From: an uncultured Desulfuromonadales bacterium
Lineage (GTDB): Bacteria; Desulfobacterota; Desulfuromonadia; Desulfuromonadales; Geopsychrobacteraceae
NCBI GenBank assembly: GCA_947259685.1
Contig: CAMYNC010000106.1
Coordinates: 1 to 13,936 of the forward strand
Direction of reading: 5' to 3'
Length of the DNA: 13,936 bases
Both the position numbers and the translations under genes were made by a program. Within the stretch, counting starts at the first letter, position 1; each line of letters opens with the position of its first letter. Shown piece by piece: positions 151 to 12,516 of this stretch. The notes under the pieces were generated by a model, which saw only the letters and a program-made list of their open reading frames with translations, was not told the origin of the DNA and did no database searches.

Positions 151-1089
151 TCAGGCAATTTTCACACAAGGCTCATTTGACGGCTCATGGACTTCCACAG
201 TGACATGCTCTAGGTTGCCCAACTCTTCTAGCAAGCCCTTGTAGTGTCCCGGCGATTGTGGATAGTGAGTCACCACCGACAAAATCAATGCGAACTTGTT
301 GGCACTGATTCGCCATAGATGTAGATCGGCGACCCGGTTGTCTGAATCCGCTTCGATGAGGGTGTGGATTTTTTTCGAGAGTTGTTCATCTCCATCGCGG
401 TCAAGCAGGATTTTGCTGGTGTCTCGTAGCAAGCCGTAAGCCCAGCGGCTGATAACCAACGCACCGACAACCCCCATCGCCGGATCGAGCCAAACCCAGC
501 CCATGAACTTTCCAGCCAATAAGGCAACGATTGCAAAAACAGATGTCAGAGCGTCAGCCAATACGTGCAGATAGGCCGCCTTCAGGTTGTGGTCATGATG
601 GTGATGGTGACCGCCAGAATGGTCATGCCCATGGGAATGTCCATTAAGCAGCAAGGCGCTCACGAGATTGACGACCAAGCCGACAACAGCAACTAGCAGG
701 GCTTCGTTAAACCTGATCGTCTCCGGTGAAAAGAAACGTTCCACCGACTCTGCCCCCATCAACAAAGCCACAACGACCAAAATGATGGCGCTGGAATAGC
801 CTCCGAGGACATCAACCTTGCCAGTACCAAAACTGTAGCTGGGATTGTCTTTATGCTTCCGTGCAAACCAGTAGGCAAAAGCGGTGATACCGAGTGCGAA
901 GAAATGCGTTCCCATGTGCCAGCCATCGGCAAGCAGCGCCATCGAGCCGGTCAACCAACCGGCCACGATTTCGATCACCATCATGATCAGTGTCAGCCAC
1001 ATGACCCGGTGCGTATTGCGTTCAGCCGTGCGGTTATCGTTATGGGTTTGGTGCTGATGTTGCCATTTTTCGATGTTGTGCGTGTGCAT
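151..1089 (-). CDS. dmeF: CDF-family metal cation exporter, DmeF-like
   Basis: Inner-membrane cation diffusion facilitator expected to export divalent metals (Co, Ni or Zn) in exchange for protons. The 312-aa protein begins with a His-rich segment (MHTHNIEKWQHQHQTH), typical of the DmeF branch. Membrane segments follow: helix 2 has LLADGWHMGTH (metal-site D55 and H58/H62 area) and helix 5 has HVLADALTS (H175, D179). A His-rich cytoplasmic loop lies at residues 151-167 and a soluble C-terminal domain at about 230-305 (DLHLWRIS, VTVEVHEP). I chose the ATG at 1089 because GAAGAAGAG lies 7 nt upstream; an in-frame TTG at 1107 overlaps that Shine-Dalgarno sequence. It lies 42 bp downstream of the MarR gene on the same strand, so the two are probably cotranscribed. 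The exact metal cannot be read from the sequence; the DmeF symbol rests on the N-terminus and loop pattern. Confidence 0.88.
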   Translation of the reverse strand: MHTHNIEKWQHQHQTHNDNRTAERNTHRVMWLTLIMMVIEIVAGWLTGSMALLADGWHMGTHFFALGITAFAYWFARKHKDNPSYSFGTGKVDVLGGYSSAIILVVVALLMGAESVERFFSPETIRFNEALLVAVVGLVVNLVSALLLNGHSHGHDHSGGHHHHHDHNLKAAYLHVLADALTSVFAIVALLAGKFMGWVWLDPAMGVVGALVISRWAYGLLRDTSKILLDRDGDEQLSKKIHTLIEADSDNRVADLHLWRISANKFALILSVVTHYPQSPGHYKGLLEELGNLEHVTVEVHEPSNEPCVKIA

Positions 1090-1131
1090 TCTTAAACTCT
1101 TCTTCAATTCGGTTAGGGAGAGAAAGGGGAA

Positions 1132-1554
1132 TCAGAATTGCTGTACCAAACGCTCCAGATAGTGTTTTAGGCTGGCCACCTCATCCTCACTGAAGGAGGC
1201 GGTAAGTTCCTCAGTTAAAAGACAGTGCAGCTGATGATGTTCCTGAAAATGCTCAAGCCCCTTCTCGGTGAGGGCAATGACATAGGAGCGACGGTCCGTT
1301 GGGTGTGGCTGCCTGGTCACCAAGCCACCTTTTTCCAGGCGATCCACCATAACTGTCAAGGTTCCAGTGGTAATCCCCATTTTCTCCGCTAGGTCTTTCA
1401 TTCGCAGCCGTTCGTGGTGACCAACAATTTCCAAGGTATGCATCTGGGCCGGAGATAATCCACTTTTCTTGACCACCGCATGCTCCCATGAAGAAATCTT
1501 GTCATAGAGTTCAATGATAACCTGCGATAGTCCGGTATGATTTCGGTCTGTCAT
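1132..1554 (-). CDS. MarR-family regulator, AdcR-like candidate metal sensor
   Basis: A 140-aa winged-helix regulator. The DNA-recognition part is at about 52-75 (MKDLAEKMGITTGTLTVMVDRL) and the wing at 81-99 (PTDRRSYVIALTEKG), both diagnostic of MarR. The ATG at 1554 is preferred over an in-frame TTG at 1590 because an AAGGT Shine-Dalgarno lies upstream of the ATG and the TTG sits inside an operator palindrome. The protein is unusually His-rich: E24, H39 and H106/H110 line up, by my recollection of the family, with the primary zinc ligands E24, H42, H108 and H112 of pneumococcal AdcR. Its neighbours are a CDF exporter in the same direction and a divergent ZIP transporter. I infer a metal-responsive repressor that controls both directions and its own gene. 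MarR membership is firm; metal sensing is inference. Confidence 0.9.
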   Translation of the reverse strand: MTDRNHTGLSQVIIELYDKISSWEHAVVKKSGLSPAQMHTLEIVGHHERLRMKDLAEKMGITTGTLTVMVDRLEKGGLVTRQPHPTDRRSYVIALTEKGLEHFQEHHQLHCLLTEELTASFSEDEVASLKHYLERLVQQF

Positions 1555-1577
1555 TAAGAGAATACCTTGCCCATAAA

Positions 1578-1624
1578 GTTTGATAATCAAGCAATATGAA
1601 CATGCTATATTTTGATTGTCAAAC
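1578..1624. promoter_or_regulatory. Divergent promoter with two palindromic MarR-type operators
   Basis: Two copies of GTTTGAYAATCAA face each other: 1578-1590 on the top strand and 1624-1612 on the bottom strand. Each is a near palindrome (TTGA-TAA-TCAA and TTTGA-TTG-TCAAA). Their centres are 32 bp apart, about three helical turns. Leftward, the right operator contains a perfect -35 TTGACA (1622-1617) with CATATT 18 bp on as -10. Rightward, TGCTATATT (1603-1611) is a good extended -10. A repressor bound here would cover both promoters. Confidence 0.6.
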
Positions 1625-1732
1625 TTATTTCTTGTCTACTTGGTTAATTGCGTTAATGTGTACAAGAACAGTCATGGTTGTTGCGTTATCTGGTTTCTCT
1701 TTCGATCACCATCACTTAAGGCAGGATGGACT

Positions 1733-2548
1733 ATGTTTGATTTTTTCCTGGAGCTCAATCCGGTCATGCAAGCCTTTCTGGCCACTCTGTTCACCTGGGG
1801 CGTCACAGCTGCAGGCGCTGCGCTGGTCTTTCTGAAGAAAACCATCAATCAAAAGCTGTTGGACGCCATGCTCGGTTTTGCTGCCGGGGTCATGATCGCC
1901 GCCAGTTTCTGGTCGCTGCTTAATCCCGGTATCGATATGGCCGAACAGATGGGGCAAACCCCTTGGCTAACCGCAGTGATCGGCTTTATGGGGGGAGGAA
2001 TCTTCATGCGTCTGACCGACAGGTTTCTGCCACACCTGCACCCTGGCCTGCGGATGGATCAGAGCGAGGGGATCAAAACATCGTGGCAGCGCAGCACGCT
2101 CCTGGTGCTGGCCATCACTCTGCATAACATCCCGGAAGGTTTGGCGATCGGTGTTGCTTTTGGTGCCGTCGCCGCAGACCTACCCTCGGCGACCATCGGT
2201 GGCGCCATCGCCTTGGCCATCGGGATCGGTATTCAGAATTTCCCCGAAGGGACCGCCGTCTCCATGCCGCTGCGCAGAGAAGGGATGAGCCAGAAGAAAA
2301 GTTTTCTGATGGGACAGGCCTCTGGCATGGTCGAACCGATCGCCGGGGTGATCGGCGCACTTTTTGTGCTGATGATGCAGCCGATTTTGCCCTATGCGTT
2401 ATGTTTCGCGGCCGGTGCTATGATTTTTGTCGTGGTTGAAGAGCTGATCCCAGAATCACAGCGGATTCAAGCCAATATCGACCTGGTTACCATGGCAACC
2501 ATGAGTGGTTTTTCGGTGATGATGCTTCTAGATGTGGCATTGGGCTGA
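1733..2548 (+). CDS. ZIP-family metal transporter, GufA type
   Basis: A 271-aa inner-membrane protein of the ZIP family, which usually imports Zn or other divalent metals. The binuclear metal-site signatures are present: HNIPEG at 131-136 and QNFPEG at 168-173. KLLDAMLGFAAGVM at the start of an early helix and AAGAMIFVVVEELIPES near the C-terminus are typical of the GufA branch (like Bordetella ZIPB). The frame is open upstream to 1616, but that part is not ZIP-like. The ATG at 1733 has AGGA 6 nt upstream, leaving a leader of roughly 115 nt from the divergent promoter. It faces away from the MarR and CDF genes, so an importer and an exporter candidate share one control region. Metal specificity is not readable. 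Confidence 0.9.
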   Translation: MFDFFLELNPVMQAFLATLFTWGVTAAGAALVFLKKTINQKLLDAMLGFAAGVMIAASFWSLLNPGIDMAEQMGQTPWLTAVIGFMGGGIFMRLTDRFLPHLHPGLRMDQSEGIKTSWQRSTLLVLAITLHNIPEGLAIGVAFGAVAADLPSATIGGAIALAIGIGIQNFPEGTAVSMPLRREGMSQKKSFLMGQASGMVEPIAGVIGALFVLMMQPILPYALCFAAGAMIFVVVEELIPESQRIQANIDLVTMATMSGFSVMMLLDVALG

Positions 2549-2818: not shown

Positions 2819-3274
2819 ATGCTGACTAGCTCACTACATACAAAATGGATCATGCGATTTTTTGTATTGATCTATCTGTTGCTTAGCTTCAGTACTGCCA
2901 ATGCCTCTTTTTGGTGCCAAGAGGAGGAAAGCTCTTCCCACTTGGAATCGAACCCCATTGGCAAATGTTGGACCGATTGCCCTCCGAACACCGATACCAC
3001 ACAGCAAACCACAGTGACCACTGAGACAGCGGTATTTTCATCTGGACAAGAGGACGATTGCCTTGATTCCCTAGTTTATTCTTCGGCACTCACGTCCTCA
3101 CAGCGGACAAGCCCGCCAAATAAAGTTCTTCCGACTGATTTTGACACGGACGATCTTCCCCACATTCCGAACTTAAGTCTAGAAGTTACTCACTTTGCCA
3201 ATCTAAGCCTACCTACTCACTTGCCAGCACCTCAATCCACAATAGCCCTGCGTACAGTTGTTCTTCTGCATTAA
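2819..3274 (+). CDS. Small secreted cysteine-containing protein, unknown function
   Basis: A 151-aa protein with an N-terminal signal peptide (RFFVLIYLLLSFSTANA, likely cleaved just before SFWC). The mature part is polar, Ser/Thr-rich and not repetitive. It has four cysteines (C33, C50, C54, C81) with a CWTDC pair, and a C-terminus ending ALRTVVLLH. The first ATG is used because AGGT lies about 7 nt upstream; an ATG at 2852 would give a shorter but still complete signal peptide. I do not recognise the family. Its plan (short exported protein, Cys near the mature N-terminus, conserved-looking tail) resembles small CzcI-like proteins beside metal-efflux genes, which would fit the metal cluster upstream. 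It could equally be a client or accessory of the thiol operon downstream. Neither link is shown by sequence. Confidence 0.7.
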   Translation: MLTSSLHTKWIMRFFVLIYLLLSFSTANASFWCQEEESSSHLESNPIGKCWTDCPPNTDTTQQTTVTTETAVFSSGQEDDCLDSLVYSSALTSSQRTSPPNKVLPTDFDTDDLPHIPNLSLEVTHFANLSLPTHLPAPQSTIALRTVVLLH

Positions 3275-5298: not shown

Positions 5299-5369
5299 CT
5301 CCAGATTGATAAGCGGCACTGGCCCGCTCGTATTATCTCAATCATCGCCAGAGTTTGGAGACTTTAGAT

Positions 5370-5810
5370 ATGTCACAGTCTGACAAAGCAATAAATACCA
5401 ATTGGACGCTGCTGTTCCTCTGTTGGCTTCTGGTCACAGTCTCAGCAACGATCAGCCTTTTTTTCAGCTCGGTGCTGGAGTATGAACCCTGCGTGCTCTG
5501 CTGGTATCAGCGGATCTGCCTGTTCCCGTTGATTTTCATTTTTGCGGCGGGCCTGTTCCCCGCCTTCGACAAAAGCGTCATCAAGTACGCTCTGCCGTTG
5601 ACCATCGCTGGCGGCTTGACCGCTTTTTACCACACCCTGCTCTACGCCGGAATCATCCCGGAGAACATTCAGCCCTGCTCACAGGGCGTCTCCTGCACGG
5701 AAAAATATATCGAGCTGTTCGGTTTTATCTCGATCCCCATGATGTCATTTTTCGCATTTACAACACTTGTCACCCTGTTAATCATCTTGAAAAGGAGAAC
5801 GTCTAAATGA
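5370..5810 (+). CDS. dsbB: DsbB/BdbC-type quinone-linked disulfide oxidase
   Basis: A 146-aa, four-helix membrane protein that oxidises a DsbA-like partner and hands electrons to quinone. The quinone-proximal pair C41/C44 is in EPCVLCWYQRICL, a strong DsbB signature including the Arg after WYQ. The second periplasmic pair is C103/C109 (PCSQGVSC). The spacing of the second pair and the short length fit the BdbC-like branch. The ATG at 5370 has GGAG 9 nt upstream; an in-frame TTG at 5355 overlaps that site. Its stop overlaps the start of the DsbA-like gene by 4 bp (ATGA at 5807-5810), so the pair is translationally coupled. Confidence 0.92.
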   Translation: MSQSDKAINTNWTLLFLCWLLVTVSATISLFFSSVLEYEPCVLCWYQRICLFPLIFIFAAGLFPAFDKSVIKYALPLTIAGGLTAFYHTLLYAGIIPENIQPCSQGVSCTEKYIELFGFISIPMMSFFAFTTLVTLLIILKRRTSK

Positions 5811-6460
5811 AGTACGCACTGATTGGCGGCACCTGTCTGGTGCTGGTTCTGGCCTTTTTGGTCGGTAGCAACTACTACAAAGATCAGCAGGTTAAAAAAT
5901 ACGGTTTTATGGCTGCGGAAAACAGAGAACTCTTTATTCGCGATCATTCGCGAACCCTGGGCAGCGACGATGCCAAGGTTTTCCTGGTTGAGTTTATGGA
6001 CCCGGCCTGCGAAACCTGCGCCGCCTTTTCCCCCTTTGTTAAACAGATCATGGATGCCAATCCAGGCAAAATTAAACTGGTGCTGCGCTACGCCCCGTTC
6101 CATGATGGCGCCGATAATTTCGTCAAAATTGCTGAAGCCGCCGGAAAACAGGGGAAGTACTGGGAAACCCTGGATCTGATGTTTAAGACCCAGAGTATCT
6201 GGGCCAGCCACGGCAACTGGCAGCCGGAGAAATTATGGGATCTTCTGCCGAGGGCAGGCGTGGATGTCGAGCAGATCAGAAAAGATATGCATAGCCCTGA
6301 GATCGCCAAAATCATCGAGCAGGACATGGCTGACGTAAGAGCGCTGAACGTGCAAAAGACGCCCGGCTATTTTGTTAACGGCAAGCCGCTGCAGACCTTT
6401 GGCTACCGTCAGTTGCAGCAGTTGATCCAGAATGAACTCAATCTGCAATACCCGAACTGA
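5807..6460 (+). CDS. DsbA-family thiol:disulfide oxidoreductase
   Basis: A 217-aa periplasmic oxidase with an N-terminal membrane anchor or signal (residues 3-21). The active site is C68-E-T-C71 in EFMDPACETCAAF. The cis-proline loop is KTPGYFVNGK (P186). An inserted helical domain (about 100-180) matches the DsbA layout. It is coupled to DsbB by a 4-bp overlap, so DsbB is its probable re-oxidant. The CETC dipeptide differs from the CPHC of enterobacterial DsbA and suggests a different redox potential. The VKOR-Trx gene starts 31 bp after its stop. Confidence 0.92.
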   Translation: MKYALIGGTCLVLVLAFLVGSNYYKDQQVKKYGFMAAENRELFIRDHSRTLGSDDAKVFLVEFMDPACETCAAFSPFVKQIMDANPGKIKLVLRYAPFHDGADNFVKIAEAAGKQGKYWETLDLMFKTQSIWASHGNWQPEKLWDLLPRAGVDVEQIRKDMHSPEIAKIIEQDMADVRALNVQKTPGYFVNGKPLQTFGYRQLQQLIQNELNLQYPN

Positions 6461-6491
6461 TTTTGCATCAAAAAACGAGAGGAACTCAGAA

Positions 6492-7412
6492 TTGAGTAAA
6501 AAGAAGAAAAAACAGAAGCCCTCTTCAGGGCCCCCAAAACCGGCAGCGGAACGGTCTTTGAAGCAAGGCAAAAAGCAACGACAACCGGTCCTGAAGAAAA
6601 GAAAGCAGCCCAACTGGCCGGTAACGGTACTCGCTTGTGTCGGGATGGCATTGACCCTGTACCTGACCGTTAACATCTGGCTTGGCGGCACGCCCCTGTA
6701 TTGCGCCGAAGGGAGCTCGTGCGACATTGTCCAACAGAGCCGCTGGGGAACCTTCCTTTTGCTGCCAACATCCTTTTGGGGATTATTGACCTACGCTACG
6801 CTGGCCTTTATCGGTTTTAAGGTCCACAGTCCGGAGAAGCATTGGAAAGCAGCCTGGGTCGTCTCCGCGGTTGGGTTAGGCTACAGTATCTATCTTACTT
6901 CCATGTCGGTCTTTGTTATCGATGCGGTCTGTGCCTACTGCCTCATTTCCTTATCGCTGATGACAATTACTTTCGGAGTCATCGTTTCGCAGCGCCCCGA
7001 AGGGATGCCGAAGTTTAAGATGAACACCTGGATAGCAGAAACCGTCGTCGTGGCGCTGATATTTGTCGGCGGAATGCATCTGCACTATAGCGGTGTCTTC
7101 GACCCTGCGGCAGGACCTGAGGTCCCCTATCTGAAAGGATTGGCCACTCATCTCACCGAGAATGATGCCGTTCTTTACGGAGCTTTCTGGTGACCGGCTT
7201 GCAAGGAACAGAAGTTTCTGTTCGAGTCATCTGCCGAATTACTTACTTATGTAGAATGTACGCCCGGAGGCCGTGGGACTCCAAAAGCAGCAGAGTGCAG
7301 AATAAACGATATCAGTTCTTATCCAACATGGATTATCGGGGGAAAGAAGTATAAAGGGTTACTTAAACCAGAGCAGTTGGCTGCGCTTACTGGGTATCCG
7401 ATGAAAAAATAG
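6492..7412 (+). CDS. VKOR-thioredoxin fusion, probable selenoprotein (Sec at TGA 7191-7193)
   Basis: A 306-residue reading if the in-frame TGA is read as selenocysteine. Residues 1-40 are a very basic cytoplasmic tail. Residues 43-200 are a VKOR membrane domain with all four redox cysteines: the loop pair C71/C78 (YCAEGSSCDIV) and the CxxC pair C147/C150 (DAVCAYCL). The last part is a periplasmic thioredoxin domain whose active site reads FW-U234-P-A-C237, where family members have FWCPxC. Past the TGA the frame keeps homology-like features: YVECTPGGRGTPKAAEC (C256/C269), the cis-Pro motif SYPTWIIGG (P278), KGLLKPEQLAALTG, then TAG at 7410. VKOR oxidises its fused Trx partner and passes electrons to quinone. 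The TTG start at 6492 has AGAGGAA about 8 nt upstream; an ATG at 6432 lies inside the DsbA-like gene. The alternative is a Cys-to-stop mutation (TGC/TGT to TGA) or a sequencing error, but the adjacent SECIS-like hairpin argues against both. Confidence 0.87.
7191..7236 (+). promoter_or_regulatory. Candidate bacterial SECIS element directing UGA recoding
   Basis: Directly after the UGA (7191-7193), GAACAGAA (7206-7213) and TTCTGTTC (7216-7223) form a perfect inverted repeat. Allowing a realistic loop gives a 7-bp stem closed by the tetraloop AGUU (7213-7216), with G as its second base. The loop starts 19 nt after the UGA. A lower helix CGGC (7195-7198) with GCCG (7233-7236) extends the element to the base of the UGA. 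Known bacterial SECIS elements recognised by SelB place a small apical loop, with a G in its first two bases, about 16-37 nt after the UGA, and this fits. No folding program was run. Confidence 0.75.
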
Positions 7413-8040: not shown

Positions 8041-8448
8041 TCAATTGAGGAGATGCCGATCTACGAAAGCCTTGGGTTTCAGAACCTCAATGCCGCCATA
8101 GCCATCCACATCCAGAAGATGTTTATCGCCACTGACTATCAACCGGGAACCACTAGCCAATGCGCAGGCGATGAACATATCATCATCGGGGTCAGCACTT
8201 ACCGGCTCTTTCAGCGGCTCCGCCTGGATCATATCCGCCTCAACGACGATTAAGTCCAGAAGCTCAGCAAGATCTACAGGCGGATACTTTTTGCTGAGAA
8301 CTTCCGCGACCCGCTGATACTCTTGCAGGATTTCTGGTGAGAGAACGAGCGTAAACCTGCCGTCACGCCAATCCTGGAGTATTTTGCCTGGTGGCCCGCC
8401 GAAGAAAATCCCCGAGATAAAGACATTGGTATCGAGAATAACCTTCAC
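8041..8448 (-). CDS. PIN-domain toxin (putative ribonuclease)
   Basis: A 135-aa PIN-domain protein of the group often paired with AbrB- or other short antitoxins. The acidic Mg-binding residues are visible: D6 in ILDTNVFIS, E43 in SPEILQEY, D90 in SADPDDDMFIACA and D108 in VSGDKHLL. All four are intact, so an active endoribonuclease is expected. Its ATG overlaps the antitoxin stop by 4 bp (8445-8448), the usual coupling in such modules. The RNA target is unknown. Confidence 0.9.
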   Translation of the reverse strand: MKVILDTNVFISGIFFGGPPGKILQDWRDGRFTLVLSPEILQEYQRVAEVLSKKYPPVDLAELLDLIVVEADMIQAEPLKEPVSADPDDDMFIACALASGSRLIVSGDKHLLDVDGYGGIEVLKPKAFVDRHLLN

Positions 8449-8708
8449 TTGCCACCTCGGACCTCAGCTATAGCGTCTGCGATGTCGGATTTTTTAAGTC
8501 CCACTGTTTTTGCCTGCCGACGTGCTTTTGCGACCAACCCATCAAACTCATCCATAGATGGCGGGGTAATGGCCTTCAGAATCACGACGTCGCCATCACC
8601 GACGACGACGAATTGGGTGCCCGCCTTGAGGTTAAGACGCTTACGCACGTCTTCTGGAATGACGACTTGCCCCTTTGAGGACATTTTTGTTGTAGCTAAA
8701 GTTGCCAT
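8445..8708 (-). CDS. AbrB/MazE-fold antitoxin
   Basis: An 87-aa protein. The N-terminal swapped-hairpin DNA-binding domain is clear (TTKMSSKGQVVIPEDVRKRLNLKAGTQ, residues 6-32), followed by VVVGDGDVVILK. The C-terminal half (50-87) is charged and probably wraps the PIN toxin. The ATG at 8708 is chosen because AGGAGG lies close upstream; the frame extends further to 8849 but without a family match. It neutralises the toxin encoded next and probably represses the promoter through the palindrome at 8729-8742. Confidence 0.9.
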   Translation of the reverse strand: MATLATTKMSSKGQVVIPEDVRKRLNLKAGTQFVVVGDGDVVILKAITPPSMDEFDGLVAKARRQAKTVGLKKSDIADAIAEVRGGK

Positions 8709-8728
8709 AAGACTCCTCCTGCGATAAT

Positions 8729-8742
8729 TCTTACCAGTAAGA
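8729..8742. promoter_or_regulatory. Palindrome upstream of the antitoxin gene, possible operator
   Basis: TCTTAC-CA-GTAAGA is a perfect 6-bp inverted repeat with a 2-bp centre, 20 bp before the antitoxin start and just upstream of its AGGAGG. AbrB-type antitoxins commonly bind such sites to autoregulate. Promoter boxes around it are weak. Confidence 0.4.
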
Positions 8743-8869
8743 CTACAGTATCTGTGGCTCCTTGCCAAGAGGAAGGTTGAAAACAGAGGAAGATTGAAAA
8801 CCACTTCTCCGCTCAAGCAAATTGTCTCTGCCGTTGCTGGAAACGCCAAGGAGGGAGAAAGGGTTGGGG

Positions 8870-9463
8870 ATGATGAATGGACAAAGAGTTGGCTATGCCC
8901 GTGTCAGCACAACCGGCCAAGATCTCAGCTTGCAAAGAGATCGGCTTTCAACCTGCGACAAAATCTTCGAGGAAAAAGTTTCTGGTGGCAAAGGAGTCGT
9001 CAGGCCTGCACTTGAGGAGGCATTGAACTACGTCAGAGAGGGGGATGTTTTAGTCGTCACCAAACTCGACCGGCTAGCCCGCTCTGTTTTCGAGCTGATG
9101 CAAATCACCCAGACGCTTCAGGACAAGAAATGCGATCTTCAGGTTCTCGATCAGCAACTTGACACGTCAACTCCAACCGGTCGCTTGATCTTTCATGTTC
9201 TAGCTGTAATAGGCGAGTTTGAGCGTGAACTGATCACCGAACGGGCCAAAGAAGGCCGGGAACGTGCCGTGGCAGCAGGCGTGAAGTTTGGTCGCAAGCC
9301 CAAGCTCACGAAAAAGGAAGAACGTGAATTGCTTGAGATGCTGGATAGCGTCGTCATCAGCAAGGAAGACCTAGCCCAGCAGTTCAATGTTTCTAGGGCA
9401 ACGGTTTACCGGCTGGCAGCGAAACTCGATAAGGATTTTGAAGAGCAGGATCAGCAGGGCTGA
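8870..9463 (+). CDS. Small serine recombinase (resolvase/invertase family)
   Basis: A 197-aa site-specific recombinase. The catalytic serine S13 is in GYARVSTTGQD, with R11 and D18 nearby. The second catalytic patch is LDRLARS (67-72), followed by FERELITERAKEGRERA along the dimer E-helix. A C-terminal helix-turn-helix (about 165-185, ISKEDLAQQFNVSRATVYRL) binds the crossover site. Length and motifs are complete, so it should be active. The start is ATG 8870 or the adjacent ATG 8873, after a G-rich Shine-Dalgarno. It is divergent from the toxin-antitoxin module. No transposase of the Tn3 type accompanies it here, so its partner site is unknown. Close relatives resolve or invert DNA in plasmids and transposons. 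Confidence 0.93.
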   Translation: MMNGQRVGYARVSTTGQDLSLQRDRLSTCDKIFEEKVSGGKGVVRPALEEALNYVREGDVLVVTKLDRLARSVFELMQITQTLQDKKCDLQVLDQQLDTSTPTGRLIFHVLAVIGEFERELITERAKEGRERAVAAGVKFGRKPKLTKKEERELLEMLDSVVISKEDLAQQFNVSRATVYRLAAKLDKDFEEQDQQG

Positions 9464-9873: not shown

Positions 9874-12156
9874 TTAGCGTCTGGACTTTCTGTAGCGGCG
9901 GTCGGAATCATCCCCGTCGCTGTCACTGTCGTAATCGTCGCTATCGATGTCACTATCACTGTCGCTGTCAAACCATTTGTCATTGACATCGGGGGGATCC
10001 ATGTCGGCATCGGAAAGGGTCTTCATAAAGGCAACGAGGGCAGCTTCTTCCTCAGCGCTCAGGCCCAGATTCCCAAGAAGCGGCGAAAGGTTTGCCGCAA
10101 CTTCAGGTGGTGGCCACATCCCCGGAACGTCACGAGTATTGTAGAAGTGAACAATCTCCTCGATACTCTTGAATACCCCGTTGTGCCCAAAGGCTTTCAC
10201 AAAGCTGGGGTAGGGGCGCTTGTCCACGTTGCGCAGTGTCGGAGTCTTGTGCTTGCCGTAGTTCACCTCGGCAAACTCCTTATAATCGGGCTGGGTCGAA
10301 AGGAAGCCTCCGAGGCCCGGGTCAATCCAATCAGCACCATCGGGATTGAACTTCTTATGCTGGGTGTAGAATGGATTCTCCGGGTTTTTCGGTGCACCCA
10401 GATTATGGTATTTGAAATCGGTGAACAAAGGCGGTTCACCATTGGGGCCGGGTGTTACCAGGTGGCAGGCGGAACATAGGGCCTTGCCGGTGAAGAGACC
10501 GAAGCCCATCATTTCCTGATCGGTCAGTTCGGCCATTCCTTTCAGCCAGGCATCATATTTGGAGCTGTATTGATTACTTTCGCTCGAGCCCTCATAGGCG
10601 GCAATCGCTAGGGCAATGCGGTCATAGGTGGCCGCAACGTTCTTCTTCTTGCAATCGAATGAGCCGGGCCCAAATGCCTCTGTGAACAACTCCTCGTAGC
10701 TCTGGCCGAAAAGTTTCTTGGCAAATTTGGACTGTTTGACGCGTTTACAGACCACTTTTTCGCTATGATTGGCCTGCTCAAGGGGATTCAGGAATGGCCC
10801 CTGGGCCTGGTCAGCCGCTGGATTGCCCAGCTTATCGCCGGTAGCACGACCGTCCCAGAAATTTCCTCCCATGAACTCGCCGTTGGTTTTATGGAAGATG
10901 GGGCTCGGAGTGGCATACGCGGAGCTCGGTGGCTTGCGGTTGCCAAAGCGGTTCTTCTTAGCCCCTTCATACACTGCCCCATGCGCATTGATTTCAGGGT
11001 CGGGTCCGGTCCAGCCCGATTCGGGTGCATGACAAACGGCGCAGGCCTGGCCTTTGGGTGTGGACAGGTTTTTGTCGAAGAAGAGCGCTTTACCCAGTTT
11101 TTCCATCGGAGTCAGTTCACCGGTCGGCGGTTCATCGCCGATAGTGGCGGTGGTGCTGTCAGTGTCGGTCGCCCCTTTGTCGTCGGTGACGGTCAGGCTG
11201 ACAACATATGTGCCAGCCATCGCATAGCTGTGGGTCGGGCTCATGCCCGTGCCCGCGTTTCCATCGCCAAAGTCCCAGTCATAAGACACGATGGTGCCGT
11301 CAGGATCGGTCGAACCTGAGCCGTCAAACTGAATCATTTCGTTCACGGACGCGCTGTAGGGACCATCGGGGTCCGCGCTTGGCGGTTGATTGACGATATC
11401 GCTGATGGTTGCGGTGGTGGCGGCTGTGTCGGTCGCCCCCTCATTGTCGGTGACGGTCAGGCTGACGGTATATGAGCCGGCCATCGCATAGCTGTGGGTC
11501 GGGCTCATGCCCGAGCCGCTATTGCTGTCGCCAAAGTCCCAGTCATACGACACAATGGTGCCGTCGGGGTCAGTCGAACCTGAACCATCAAATTGAATCA
11601 TTTCGCTCGGGCTTGCACTGTAAGGGCCATTGGGGTCAGAAACCGGCGGTTGGTTGCCCTCCTCTTCAACGGTCACCAAAAGGCTGGTGGCTGCGGCCAG
11701 ATCTCCCTGCGCAGCATTCGCACCATTGACTGAGTTTCCGGCCGCATACAGGGTCAGCGTTCCGCTCGGCGGAGCCGTCAGGTCGAAGGTGAAGATGACA
11801 TCACCATTCCCATCGGCATTTCTGGGGGCTGACTGGACCACCTCAGCATTTAAAATCTTCGTGCCGGGATCACTGGCAGCAAGGGTTCCGGCGGTGGTCG
11901 AAACACCGAGTCCTCCGGCAACTTGCTGGCCGCCGCTAATGGTCAGGGTATAGGTATTGTTGGAATTGGGTGCCACTAGAGTCGGCCCCGTCAGGGTGAC
12001 GGTGGGAGCAACTCCCCCCATGTGGCATGTATTACAGGTTGCGCCACCTTCACCTGAAAAACCTGATATGCCATTGCTGGACGCCAGTAGCCCGCCTGGT
12101 ATTGCCAGTACAAGGGCCGTGATAACCAACCAGATAAGAAACTGTCGCTTTTTCAT
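9874..12156 (-). CDS. Secreted tri-heme PKD protein with di-heme peroxidase (MauG/CcpA-like) domain
   Basis: A 760-aa exported protein. Order: signal peptide (1-26); an N-terminal heme segment GFSGEGGATCNTCHMGG (CxxCH at 41-45) followed by a beta-rich domain to about 165; two PKD domains at about 171-252 and 258-340 (YDWDFGD, PTHSYAMAG, VSLTVTD); a di-heme cytochrome c peroxidase-like domain at 345-715 with CAVCH (372-376) and CSACH (561-565), and the family motif GGNFWDGRA; then an acidic Asp/Ser tail (730-752) ending in RRYRKSRR. Start: ATG 12156 after GGAGGAAGGA; the longer frame to 12204 lacks the signal peptide at its N-terminus. Hemes are attached in the periplasm. PKD domains usually mediate surface or matrix contacts, so it may act at the cell surface as a peroxidase, a MauG-like oxidase or an electron conduit. 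The precise reaction is not readable. Confidence 0.88.
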   Translation of the reverse strand: MKKRQFLIWLVITALVLAIPGGLLASSNGISGFSGEGGATCNTCHMGGVAPTVTLTGPTLVAPNSNNTYTLTISGGQQVAGGLGVSTTAGTLAASDPGTKILNAEVVQSAPRNADGNGDVIFTFDLTAPPSGTLTLYAAGNSVNGANAAQGDLAAATSLLVTVEEEGNQPPVSDPNGPYSASPSEMIQFDGSGSTDPDGTIVSYDWDFGDSNSGSGMSPTHSYAMAGSYTVSLTVTDNEGATDTAATTATISDIVNQPPSADPDGPYSASVNEMIQFDGSGSTDPDGTIVSYDWDFGDGNAGTGMSPTHSYAMAGTYVVSLTVTDDKGATDTDSTTATIGDEPPTGELTPMEKLGKALFFDKNLSTPKGQACAVCHAPESGWTGPDPEINAHGAVYEGAKKNRFGNRKPPSSAYATPSPIFHKTNGEFMGGNFWDGRATGDKLGNPAADQAQGPFLNPLEQANHSEKVVCKRVKQSKFAKKLFGQSYEELFTEAFGPGSFDCKKKNVAATYDRIALAIAAYEGSSESNQYSSKYDAWLKGMAELTDQEMMGFGLFTGKALCSACHLVTPGPNGEPPLFTDFKYHNLGAPKNPENPFYTQHKKFNPDGADWIDPGLGGFLSTQPDYKEFAEVNYGKHKTPTLRNVDKRPYPSFVKAFGHNGVFKSIEEIVHFYNTRDVPGMWPPPEVAANLSPLLGNLGLSAEEEAALVAFMKTLSDADMDPPDVNDKWFDSDSDSDIDSDDYDSDSDGDDSDRRYRKSRR
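11214..11640 (-). repeat. Tandem PKD-domain duplication
   Basis: The two PKD-coding units are offset by exactly 264 bp (88 codons) and remain almost identical in DNA over long stretches, for example CCATCGCATAGCTGTGGGTC at 11217 and 11481. This points to recent duplication or ongoing gene conversion. Confidence 0.8.
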
Positions 12157-12516
12157 TTGTCCTTCCTCCCTTAGATACCACCTTTTCGCAGAATTAATAG
12201 CCATGGTTCAAGTGAAACAGTCGTAATCTTTTGTCGTCTCCTTTCGTCCATCAATGAAGAGCACCATTCCCTCACCCATGGTGCTTCCCCCAGTGAATCA
12301 AGATTTGGCATCAACTAAAAAGAAAAGGCTCGCGCAACAAATTGGTATGTGATGACAAAAAACGTATGGCGAAAATGGCATGACACAGGCAACTGAATTT
12401 CTGATTTGCCAGATGTGGATCGTTTACCCCGAGTCGTATGAACTTACGAACTAGGGGAGTTGAATAGAGCGACTATGGGAACACCCTTTAACGACCACGC
12501 CGGCAGAGACTTGAAG

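What the first reader, a model, noticed from the sequence alone, without database searches (positions are those of the whole stretch)
6492..7412. Selenocysteine at the active site of a VKOR-thioredoxin fusion
Seen: the VKOR frame stops at TGA 7191-7193 exactly where the fused thioredoxin domain should have its first active-site Cys, and the same frame then runs 72 codons with a full thioredoxin tail (UPAC, SYPTW cis-Pro motif, two further Cys, KGLLKPEQLAALTG) to TAG 7410. Known: VKOR-Trx fusions carry FWCPxC at this point; Sec replacing the first Cys of CxxC occurs in other bacterial thiol-redox selenoproteins. Inference: this is a Sec-dependent disulfide-forming enzyme. I do not recall a described selenoprotein of the VKOR family, so it may be new. 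Sec in an oxidative, quinone-linked pathway is unexpected, since most such Sec enzymes are reductases.
Basis: partly seen in the sequence, partly recalled or inferred. Interest (0 to 1): 0.95.

Follow-up and report, generated by a model that had tools for sequence, protein, structure and literature searches.

The report
Selenocysteine disulfide-forming VKOR-thioredoxin enzyme
A bacterial gene for a membrane enzyme predicted to help make protein disulfide bonds has a UGA stop codon exactly where relatives have their active-site cysteine, followed by a conserved RNA hairpin and an intact remaining domain, so it very likely carries selenium there and would belong to a selenoprotein family missing from the catalogues I could read.

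Summary
Frame 6492-7412 encodes a VKOR-thioredoxin fusion; its in-frame TGA (7191-7193) aligns with Cys209 of Synechococcus VKOR. Of 79 genome-contig relatives covering the site, 26 (Desulfuromonadales, Nitrospirota, SAR324 and others) have TGA, all with the domain continuing; 53 have TGC/TGT. Of the 120 closest listed database proteins, 111 end exactly at the preceding Trp, so most are annotated truncated. A hairpin 19 nt after the UGA fits the published bacterial SECIS model in loop, stem and spacing. All seven pairs form in 27 of 27 TGA genes and 1 of 51 Cys genes, and its synonymous sites are frozen. The tail is under purifying selection. SelA is in 24 of 25 and SelB in 23 of 25 TGA genomes; tRNA-Sec only reached its cut-off in 16. 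Twelve of 26 relatives end this same gene with TGA, against global reassignment. A 2026 inventory of 119 prokaryotic selenoprotein families lists no VKOR. Mechanism (inferred): Sec234 passes electrons from thiols to Cys71/Cys77, the membrane CxxC and quinone. No DsbB was found in 14 of 25 TGA genomes. The window's own genome is not held.

The parts
6492..7412 (+). VKOR-thioredoxin fusion read through the UGA (306 aa, U234), TTG start, TAG stop
   Evidence: Pfam VKOR PF07884 7.9e-21; PDB relatives 3kp9/4nv2/4nv6
6480..6484 (+). AGGAA, Shine-Dalgarno-like sequence before the TTG start
   Evidence: read; inference
6615..6980 (+). VKOR domain (residues 42-163)
   Evidence: helices in AlphaFold2 model, mean pLDDT 90.4
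6702..6722 (+). Loop cysteines Cys71 (6702-6704) and Cys77 (6720-6722), counterparts of Synechococcus Cys50/Cys56
   Evidence: invariant in A1 and A2; alignment
6930..6941 (+). Membrane CxxC, Cys147/Cys150, counterpart of Synechococcus residues 130/133
   Evidence: invariant; alignment
7191..7193 (+). In-frame TGA, predicted Sec234, at the position of Cys209 of Synechococcus VKOR
7200..7202 (+). Cys237, second residue of the UxxC pair
7206..7223 (+). SECIS-like hairpin: 7-bp stem, loop AGUU at 7213-7216, 19 nt after the UGA
   Evidence: model constraints in PMC13188914
7194..7409 (+). Rest of the thioredoxin-like domain (72 codons), under purifying selection
   Evidence: Trx domain matches 3kp8, rmsd 0.8 A over 94 columns
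5807..6460 (+). DsbA-like thioredoxin-fold protein, directly upstream
   Evidence: Thioredoxin_4 4.2e-22, DSBA 4.7e-10; neighbour in L001, L002, L004, L005, L006, 5 of 26 TGA loci
5355..5810 (+). DsbB-family protein, overlaps the DsbA-like gene by 4 bases
   Evidence: DsbB 2.4e-13; neighbour in L002, L004, L005, L006
4549..5298 (+). CcdA/DsbD-TM protein
   Evidence: DsbD_TM 7.5e-20; neighbour in L002, L005, L006
4008..4544 (+). TlpA/ResA-like redoxin
   Evidence: Redoxin 4.8e-31; neighbour in L002, L005, L006

Best explanation
The gene at 6492-7412 encodes a VKOR-thioredoxin fusion whose in-frame UGA (7191-7193), followed by a conserved SECIS-like hairpin, is very likely read as selenocysteine in place of the first active-site cysteine of the thioredoxin-like domain, giving what would be a quinone-linked disulfide-forming selenoenzyme. 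Shown by sequence: the UGA at the Cys209 position, the intact and selected tail, the hairpin frozen at synonymous sites in TGA genes, and SelA/SelB in nearly all TGA genomes examined. Inferred: SelB binds the hairpin and delivers Sec-tRNA; the UxxC of the thioredoxin domain oxidises periplasmic thiols (directly or through the neighbouring DsbA-like protein); Sec234 then forms an interdomain selenenylsulfide with loop Cys71, as Cys209 does with Cys50 in Synechococcus; electrons pass to Cys77, the membrane Cys147/Cys150 pair and a quinone. Why Sec: probably faster exchange and a pair that a low-potential anaerobic quinone can still re-oxidise (untested, from recalled selenium chemistry).
For: Position: U234 aligns with Cys209 and with TGC/TGT in 53 relatives. 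Family-wide: TGA in 26 of 79 covered loci, including records titled as named strains, Malonomonas rubra DSM 5091 and Pelovirga terrestris M08fum; 111 of 120 listed closest proteins, the window's own included, end at the Trp before the site. Hairpin: all 7 pairs form in 27 of 27 TGA genes (26 of 27 fully Watson-Crick) and in 1 of 51 Cys genes; synonymous divergence in hairpin codons pS 0.024 against 0.709 upstream and 0.677 in the tail; commonest third base at 96-100% for codons +5 to +11 against means of 56-57% elsewhere; loop NG[G/U]N in 27 of 27, as in the published model. Machinery: SelB over cut-off in 23 of 25 TGA genomes against 6 of 24 Cys genomes, SelA 24 of 25 against 8 of 24, Fisher p 1.6e-6 and 3.0e-6; SelD in 20 of 25, each with a copy holding one in-frame TGA of its own. 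TGA is not globally reassigned: 12 of 26 relatives end this same gene with TGA. Oxidase role: Cys71/77/147/150 invariant; fold matches Synechococcus VKOR; no DsbB found in 14 of 25 TGA genomes and one VKOR gene only in 23 of 25; Cys209-Cys50 disulfide in the Synechococcus structure (PMC4555152, passage).
Against: The window's genome is not held, so its sel genes are untested. G004 lacks SelA, SelB and SelD over cut-off, G014 lacks SelB, and G008, G009, G010 and G019 lack SelD; all are MAGs by title, and G004's contig looks misbinned. tRNA-Sec reached Rfam's cut-off in only 16 of 25 TGA genomes against 13 of 24 Cys genomes (rerun of 9), so tRNA-Sec does not separate the sets. With relatedness allowed for, only 1-2 independent pairs test the TGA-SelB link, too few for significance. 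Six of 24 Cys genomes have SelB too. The hairpin alone has -6.8 to -7.7 kcal/mol, mostly just short of the published -7.5 limit, though the 51-nt fold meets it (-9.9 to -23.2). The stem hardly varies, so covariation cannot be tested; Cys genes already form 5-6 of 7 pairs in 34 of 51. In Desulfuromonadales-type genomes a DsbB is present and next door in the window, so VKOR is not the only oxidase there, and CcdA/TlpA neighbours leave a reductive or isomerase role open.
Confidence: 0.8

Rival explanations
1. The UGA is read as Sec, but the enzyme works mainly as a thiol-disulfide reductase or isomerase, using electrons from the neighbouring CcdA/TlpA pathway rather than making disulfides.
For: TlpA-like and CcdA genes lie in the same gene cluster in the window and in L002, L005, L006; a DsbB/DsbA pair that could do the oxidation is adjacent; many Sec enzymes of known function are reductases (recalled).
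Against: All four VKOR redox cysteines are invariant, which a reductase would not obviously need; no DsbB was found in 11 of 14 Nitrospirota-titled TGA genomes; outside the Desulfuromonadales-type loci no relative of the window's redox genes was found within 6 kb of a TGA locus (contigs often short).
Confidence: 0.15
2. The TGA is an ordinary stop: a truncated VKOR is the product and the tail is a decaying or separately translated remnant.
For: Public annotation stops there (P0041 of Pelovirga terrestris, 238 aa).
Against: The tail is intact in 26 of 26 relatives, with pN and pS like the upstream part; 27 of 27 TGA genes keep a perfect hairpin that 50 of 51 Cys genes lack.
Confidence: 0.02
3. 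UGA is read as another amino acid through a changed genetic code or general read-through.
For: The frame is open past the TGA.
Against: 12 of 26 relatives end this very gene with TGA; the aligned residue is Cys in all 53 non-TGA loci; SelA, SelB and SelD are present in most TGA genomes.
Confidence: 0.02
4. Sequencing or assembly error turning TGC/TGT into TGA.
For: The window is a single record of unknown origin.
Against: The same TGA is in 26 other contigs, including records titled as named strains.
Confidence: 0.005

Closest known systems
Synechococcus VKOR-Trx fusion (PDB 3kp9, 3kp8, 4nv2, 4nv5, 4nv6)
   Same: Same domain order, same four VKOR cysteines, same thioredoxin-like domain (30-32% identity over the whole, 49% in the Trx domain)
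   Different: Has Cys209 where this gene has UGA/Sec; cyanobacterial
Cys-type VKOR-Trx fusions of Nitrospira, Proteobacteria, Acidobacteriota, Myxococcota and others (L026-L080 except L030 and L079)
   Same: Cys relatives in genome contigs, 35-49% identity to the window protein; most share the EQKxLF-like segment
   Different: TGC/TGT at the site; perfect hairpin in 1 of 51
Predicted DsbA-like and DsbG-like selenoproteins (UxxC)
   Same: Sec as first residue of a Trx-fold UxxC in a disulfide-exchange protein (PMC1088965, PMC13188914)
   Different: Listed under DSBA/DsbG domains, not VKOR; not fused to a VKOR membrane domain as far as the tables say
Sec-containing thioredoxins (UxxC)
   Same: Same UxxC motif
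   Different: Thioredoxin family PF00085, not a VKOR fusion

Membership tests
VKOR family, Trx-fusion type | VKOR domain over Pfam's cut-off | tested here: met
   PF07884 75 bits, cut-off 27.5
VKOR family, Trx-fusion type | Loop Cys pair and membrane CxxC | tested here: met
   C71, C77, C147, C150 invariant in 33 and 49 sequences
VKOR family, Trx-fusion type | C-terminal thioredoxin-like domain with active pair | tested here: met
   With Sec for the first Cys; model (C in place of U) matches 3kp8, rmsd 0.8 A over 94 columns
VKOR family, Trx-fusion type | Thiol oxidation coupled to quinone reduction | not testable with these tools
   Needs biochemistry
Bacterial selenoprotein | In-frame UGA aligned with Cys of homologues, coding continues | tested here: met
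   26 TGA against 53 Cys loci; tail under selection
Bacterial selenoprotein | bSECIS: 3-9 nt loop, 4-16 bp stem, G in first two loop positions, 16-37 nt spacing | tested here: met
   4-nt loop, 7-bp stem, G present in 27 of 27, spacing 19 nt (model)
Bacterial selenoprotein | bSECIS: MFE at most -7.5 kcal/mol | tested here: inconclusive
   51-nt fold -9.9 to -23.2 in 27 rows, but the hairpin alone -6.8 to -7.7; strict stem-only test passed 3 of 27; bSECISearch itself not available
Bacterial selenoprotein | selA, selB, selD and tRNA-Sec in the genome | tested here: inconclusive
   Own genome not held. TGA relatives over cut-off: SelA 24/25, SelB 23/25, SelD 20/25, tRNA-Sec 16/25
Bacterial selenoprotein | Selenium or Sec detected in the protein | not testable with these tools
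   Needs 75Se labelling or mass spectrometry
Catalogued selenoprotein families | Listed as a known selenoprotein family | tested here: not met
   No VKOR/PF07884 row in Table 1 of PMC13188914, said to hold 119 families; no NCBIfam model over cut-off for 5 proteins scanned

The most novel reading that the evidence does not exclude
Selenium-dependent oxidative protein folding: in a broad set of Nitrospirota and related bacteria the selenocysteine VKOR-Trx is the only DsbB/VKOR-type source of envelope disulfides, so disulfide formation in these cells depends on selenium, with an interdomain selenenylsulfide (Sec234-Cys71) as the catalytic intermediate.
Probability: 0.45. Interest if true: 0.86.

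Novelty: new variant of a known kind. Interest (0 to 1): 0.74.

Why it matters
It appears to add a membrane enzyme of disulfide-bond formation to the bacterial selenoproteome and to explain why many close VKOR proteins are annotated as ending exactly at the active site. If the chemistry is as inferred, it is a natural experiment on what selenium buys an enzyme that must hand electrons to a quinone, and it ties envelope protein folding to selenium supply in some bacteria. It also shows a SECIS-like element overlapping a segment (EQKxLF) whose codons in Cys relatives already form 5-6 of the 7 pairs in most cases, which may be how Sec could be gained or lost readily.

Tried and rejected
Rejected: ordinary stop with a decayed tail; global UGA reassignment; assembly error for the family. 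Rfam found nothing over cut-off in the window, ARAGORN no tRNA. Viral contigs held no relative; plasmids held 14 records, all cyanobacterial, at 27-33% identity (their codon at the site was not looked at). Covariation of the hairpin was not counted because the stem hardly varies. tRNA-Sec as a discriminator failed: 16 of 25 TGA genomes against 13 of 24 Cys genomes over Rfam's cut-off; some hits near the cut-off may be other long-arm tRNAs (my judgement). Nine TGA genomes lack a hit over cut-off, also when searched again alone. A DNA probe found 51 exact bases of a tRNA-Sec ending just before an N-run in G018, and 26-28-base pieces in G013 and G014; ARAGORN found none in stretches of 8 genomes fetched around their sel genes. 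My strict hairpin energy test passed 3 of 27 TGA and 3 of 53 Cys genes, so it does not discriminate; the position-specific stem and frozen codons do. One Cys gene (L070) has a perfect 7-pair hairpin; remnant or chance is not resolved. Pfam on 10 ORFs beside 7 TGA loci gave no redox protein. The tree needs at least 5 Sec/Cys changes and has no outgroup root, so gain and loss cannot be told apart.

Full report
Observation. The frame 6492-7412 was translated with TGA as U: 306 residues, one U at residue 234 (7191-7193), stop TAG at 7410. The normal frame stops at the TGA. Pfam finds VKOR (PF07884) at residues 42-163. The closest solved structures by sequence are the Synechococcus VKOR-Trx entries, 4 distinct sequences. 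In the printed alignment, U234 (shown as C) pairs with residue 209 of the chain, C71 and C77 with the loop cysteines, and C147/C150 with residues 130/133; I counted these from the chain coordinates and they agree with the mutant names C50A and C212A.

Family. A protein search gave 784 relatives, 120 listed. Of those 120 (P0002, the window's own truncated product, included), 111 end exactly at the Trp before the site and 9 are full length with Cys. The Pelovirga terrestris protein in public databases is one of the 238-residue forms (P0041), so the database entry is truncated. A genome-contig scan matched 130 stretches, of which 83 encode a relative, and kept the best 80. The site is covered in 79: TGA in 26 (L001-L025 and L030), TGC or TGT in 53; L079 does not reach it. 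Titles of the TGA loci are Desulfuromonadales and other Deltaproteobacteria (Malonomonas rubra DSM 5091, Geopsychrobacter, Pelovirga terrestris, a Desulfobulbaceae MAG), many Nitrospirota, two SAR324, and one Victivallaceae MAG (L004). L004's 3-kb contig carries DsbB and DsbA genes 85% and 80% identical to the window's, so I take it as misbinned (inference).

Coding signal after the UGA. All 26 TGA loci continue in frame with the thioredoxin tail; L008 runs into Ns. Over the 351 pairs of the 27 TGA genes (the window and 26 loci), mean pN/pS values are 0.223/0.709 for the 60 codons before the UGA and 0.258/0.677 for codons +13 to +66. Twelve of the 26 relatives use TGA as the final stop of this same gene, so UGA keeps its stop meaning there.

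SECIS. In all 27 TGA genes a 7-bp stem with a 4-nt loop lies 19 nt after the UGA (window 7206-7223); all seven pairs form in 27 of 27, fully Watson-Crick in 26. The hairpin is in the minimum-energy fold of the 51 nt from the UGA in 27 of 27. In Cys genes all seven pairs form in 1 of 51, and 5 or 6 of 7 in another 34 (L073 and L074 of 53 were skipped as masked or cut). The codons are E-Q-K-x-L-F: CAG, CTG and TTC are used 27 of 27 times and GAA 26 of 27; codon +8 always ends in T although its residue is D, F, S, A or V. Elsewhere in the same genes CAG is 76% of Gln codons, CTG 43% of Leu, TTC 47% of Phe and GAA 59% of Glu; random synonymous codons would give a perfect Watson-Crick stem in 4.7% of draws on average. 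Synonymous divergence in these codons is 0.024. The other codons with a third base at 96% or more are -1 (Trp), the site itself, +3 (Cys), +11 and +46. The loops are AGGA, AGUU, AGUC, AGGC, AGGU and GGGA. The model in the figure legend of PMC13188914 (passages) asks for a 3-9 nt loop, a 4-16 bp stem, G in the first two loop positions (mostly NG[G/U]N), 16-37 nt spacing and MFE at most -7.5. All are met except that the hairpin alone has -6.8 to -7.7 kcal/mol, while the 51-nt fold has -9.9 to -23.2. For the window, 6 of 200 dinucleotide shuffles fold as well (z -2.24).

Machinery. Given 50 of the 80 loci (26 TGA, 24 hand-picked Cys; 49 genomes), SelB is over its cut-off in 23 of 25 TGA genomes (not G004, G014) and 6 of 24 Cys genomes; SelA in 24 of 25 (not G004) and 8 of 24. 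Fisher tests give 1.6e-6 and 3.0e-6, but with relatedness allowed for only 1-2 independent pairs remain, too few for significance. SelD, asked for the 25 TGA genomes only, is over cut-off in 20 (not G004, G008, G009, G010, G019), each with a copy that has one in-frame TGA; SelD is a known selenoprotein, so this is a second sign of Sec decoding, though I did not check where in SelD the TGA lies. tRNA-Sec reached the cut-off in 16 of 25 TGA and 13 of 24 Cys genomes; a rerun on the nine others found none more. ARAGORN called tRNA-Sec in all 8 of the hits I fetched. In G018 a tRNA-Sec gene breaks off just before a run of N after 51 exact bases. For the nearest named-strain relative, Malonomonas rubra (G002), SelA, SelB, SelD and tRNA-Sec are all over cut-off. 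The window's own genome is not held.

Structure and mechanism. AlphaFold2 on a 49-row alignment, with C in place of U, gave mean pLDDT 90.4, pTM 0.75. Foldseek's top five are the Synechococcus entries; over the whole chain the rmsd is 12.3-12.7 A, so the domains lie differently, while the Trx domain alone matches 3kp8 at 0.8 A over 94 columns. PMC4555152 (passages) reports a Cys50-Cys209 disulfide in the Synechococcus structure and an electron path from the Trx domain through the loop cysteines to the CxxC and quinone. By homology I infer that Sec234 would make that bond with Cys71. In 14 of 25 TGA genomes no DsbB was found (11 of the 14 Nitrospirota-titled ones, and G019, G022, G025), and in 23 of 25 only one VKOR gene was found; G017 and G021 have two, and G017's are its two TGA loci. 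So in those 14 the VKOR genes detected appear to be the Sec type only, which suggests (does not show) that it is the main disulfide source. MAG incompleteness is the caveat. In the window the gene ends a cluster TlpA - CcdA - DsbB - DsbA-like - VKOR-Trx (all four neighbours in L002, L005, L006; part in L001, L004, whose contigs are short), so there it works beside another oxidase. The idea that Sec suits a low-potential quinone rests on general selenium chemistry recalled, not on a call.

Evolution. On a quick tree of 87 rows (window, 77 of 80 loci, 9 database proteins) at least 5 Sec/Cys changes are needed, and Sec rows cluster. Four database proteins close to the window (P0003-P0006, 69-74% identical) have Cys, so the residue switches over short distances; their DNA was not seen.

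Literature. PMC13188914 (2026; section 7 parts 1 and 2 of 3, and passages) says it lists 119 prokaryotic selenoprotein families; none in its table is VKOR. Term finds for VKOR, vitamin K and epoxide gave nothing in PMC9312934, PMC12013277 (section 7 also read), PMC5029168, PMC1088965, PMC2398784, PMC8318568 and PMC1794560. The VKOR phylogeny PMC4555120 has no mention of selenocysteine or selenoprotein. Searches pairing selenocysteine or selenoprotein with VKOR or vitamin K epoxide reductase (20 of 25 papers listed; 1; 13) listed no paper whose title or abstract start is on a bacterial VKOR selenoprotein. Supplements and most subscription papers were not searched. PMC1088965 already predicted DsbA-like selenoproteins and linked selenium to disulfide bond formation (passages).

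Noticed in passing
window 8041-8849, - strand: PIN-domain protein and MazE-like antitoxin pair, probably a toxin-antitoxin module, next to a serine resolvase at 8822-9463.
   Followed up: no
window 9874-12204, - strand: Large protein with PKD domains and a MauG/di-haem cytochrome c peroxidase domain.
   Followed up: no
window 151-2548: Cation efflux protein and MarR regulator on one strand, ZIP transporter on the other.
   Followed up: no
window 2819-3274: Small Cys-containing protein with a signal-peptide-like start (by eye) and no Pfam family, kept upstream of the redox cluster in L002, L004, L005 and L006 at 48-55% identity.
   Followed up: partly
L070 8615: A Cys-type gene (TGC) in Nitrospirales that carries the perfect 7-pair hairpin of the Sec type: a SECIS remnant or chance.
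   Followed up: no
L017 and L019 (both in G017): One Nitrospirota MAG carries two TGA-type VKOR-Trx genes.
   Followed up: no
L009 10773-13017: Downstream of a Sec VKOR-Trx: a phosphonate-type substrate-binding protein and a histidine kinase.
   Followed up: no
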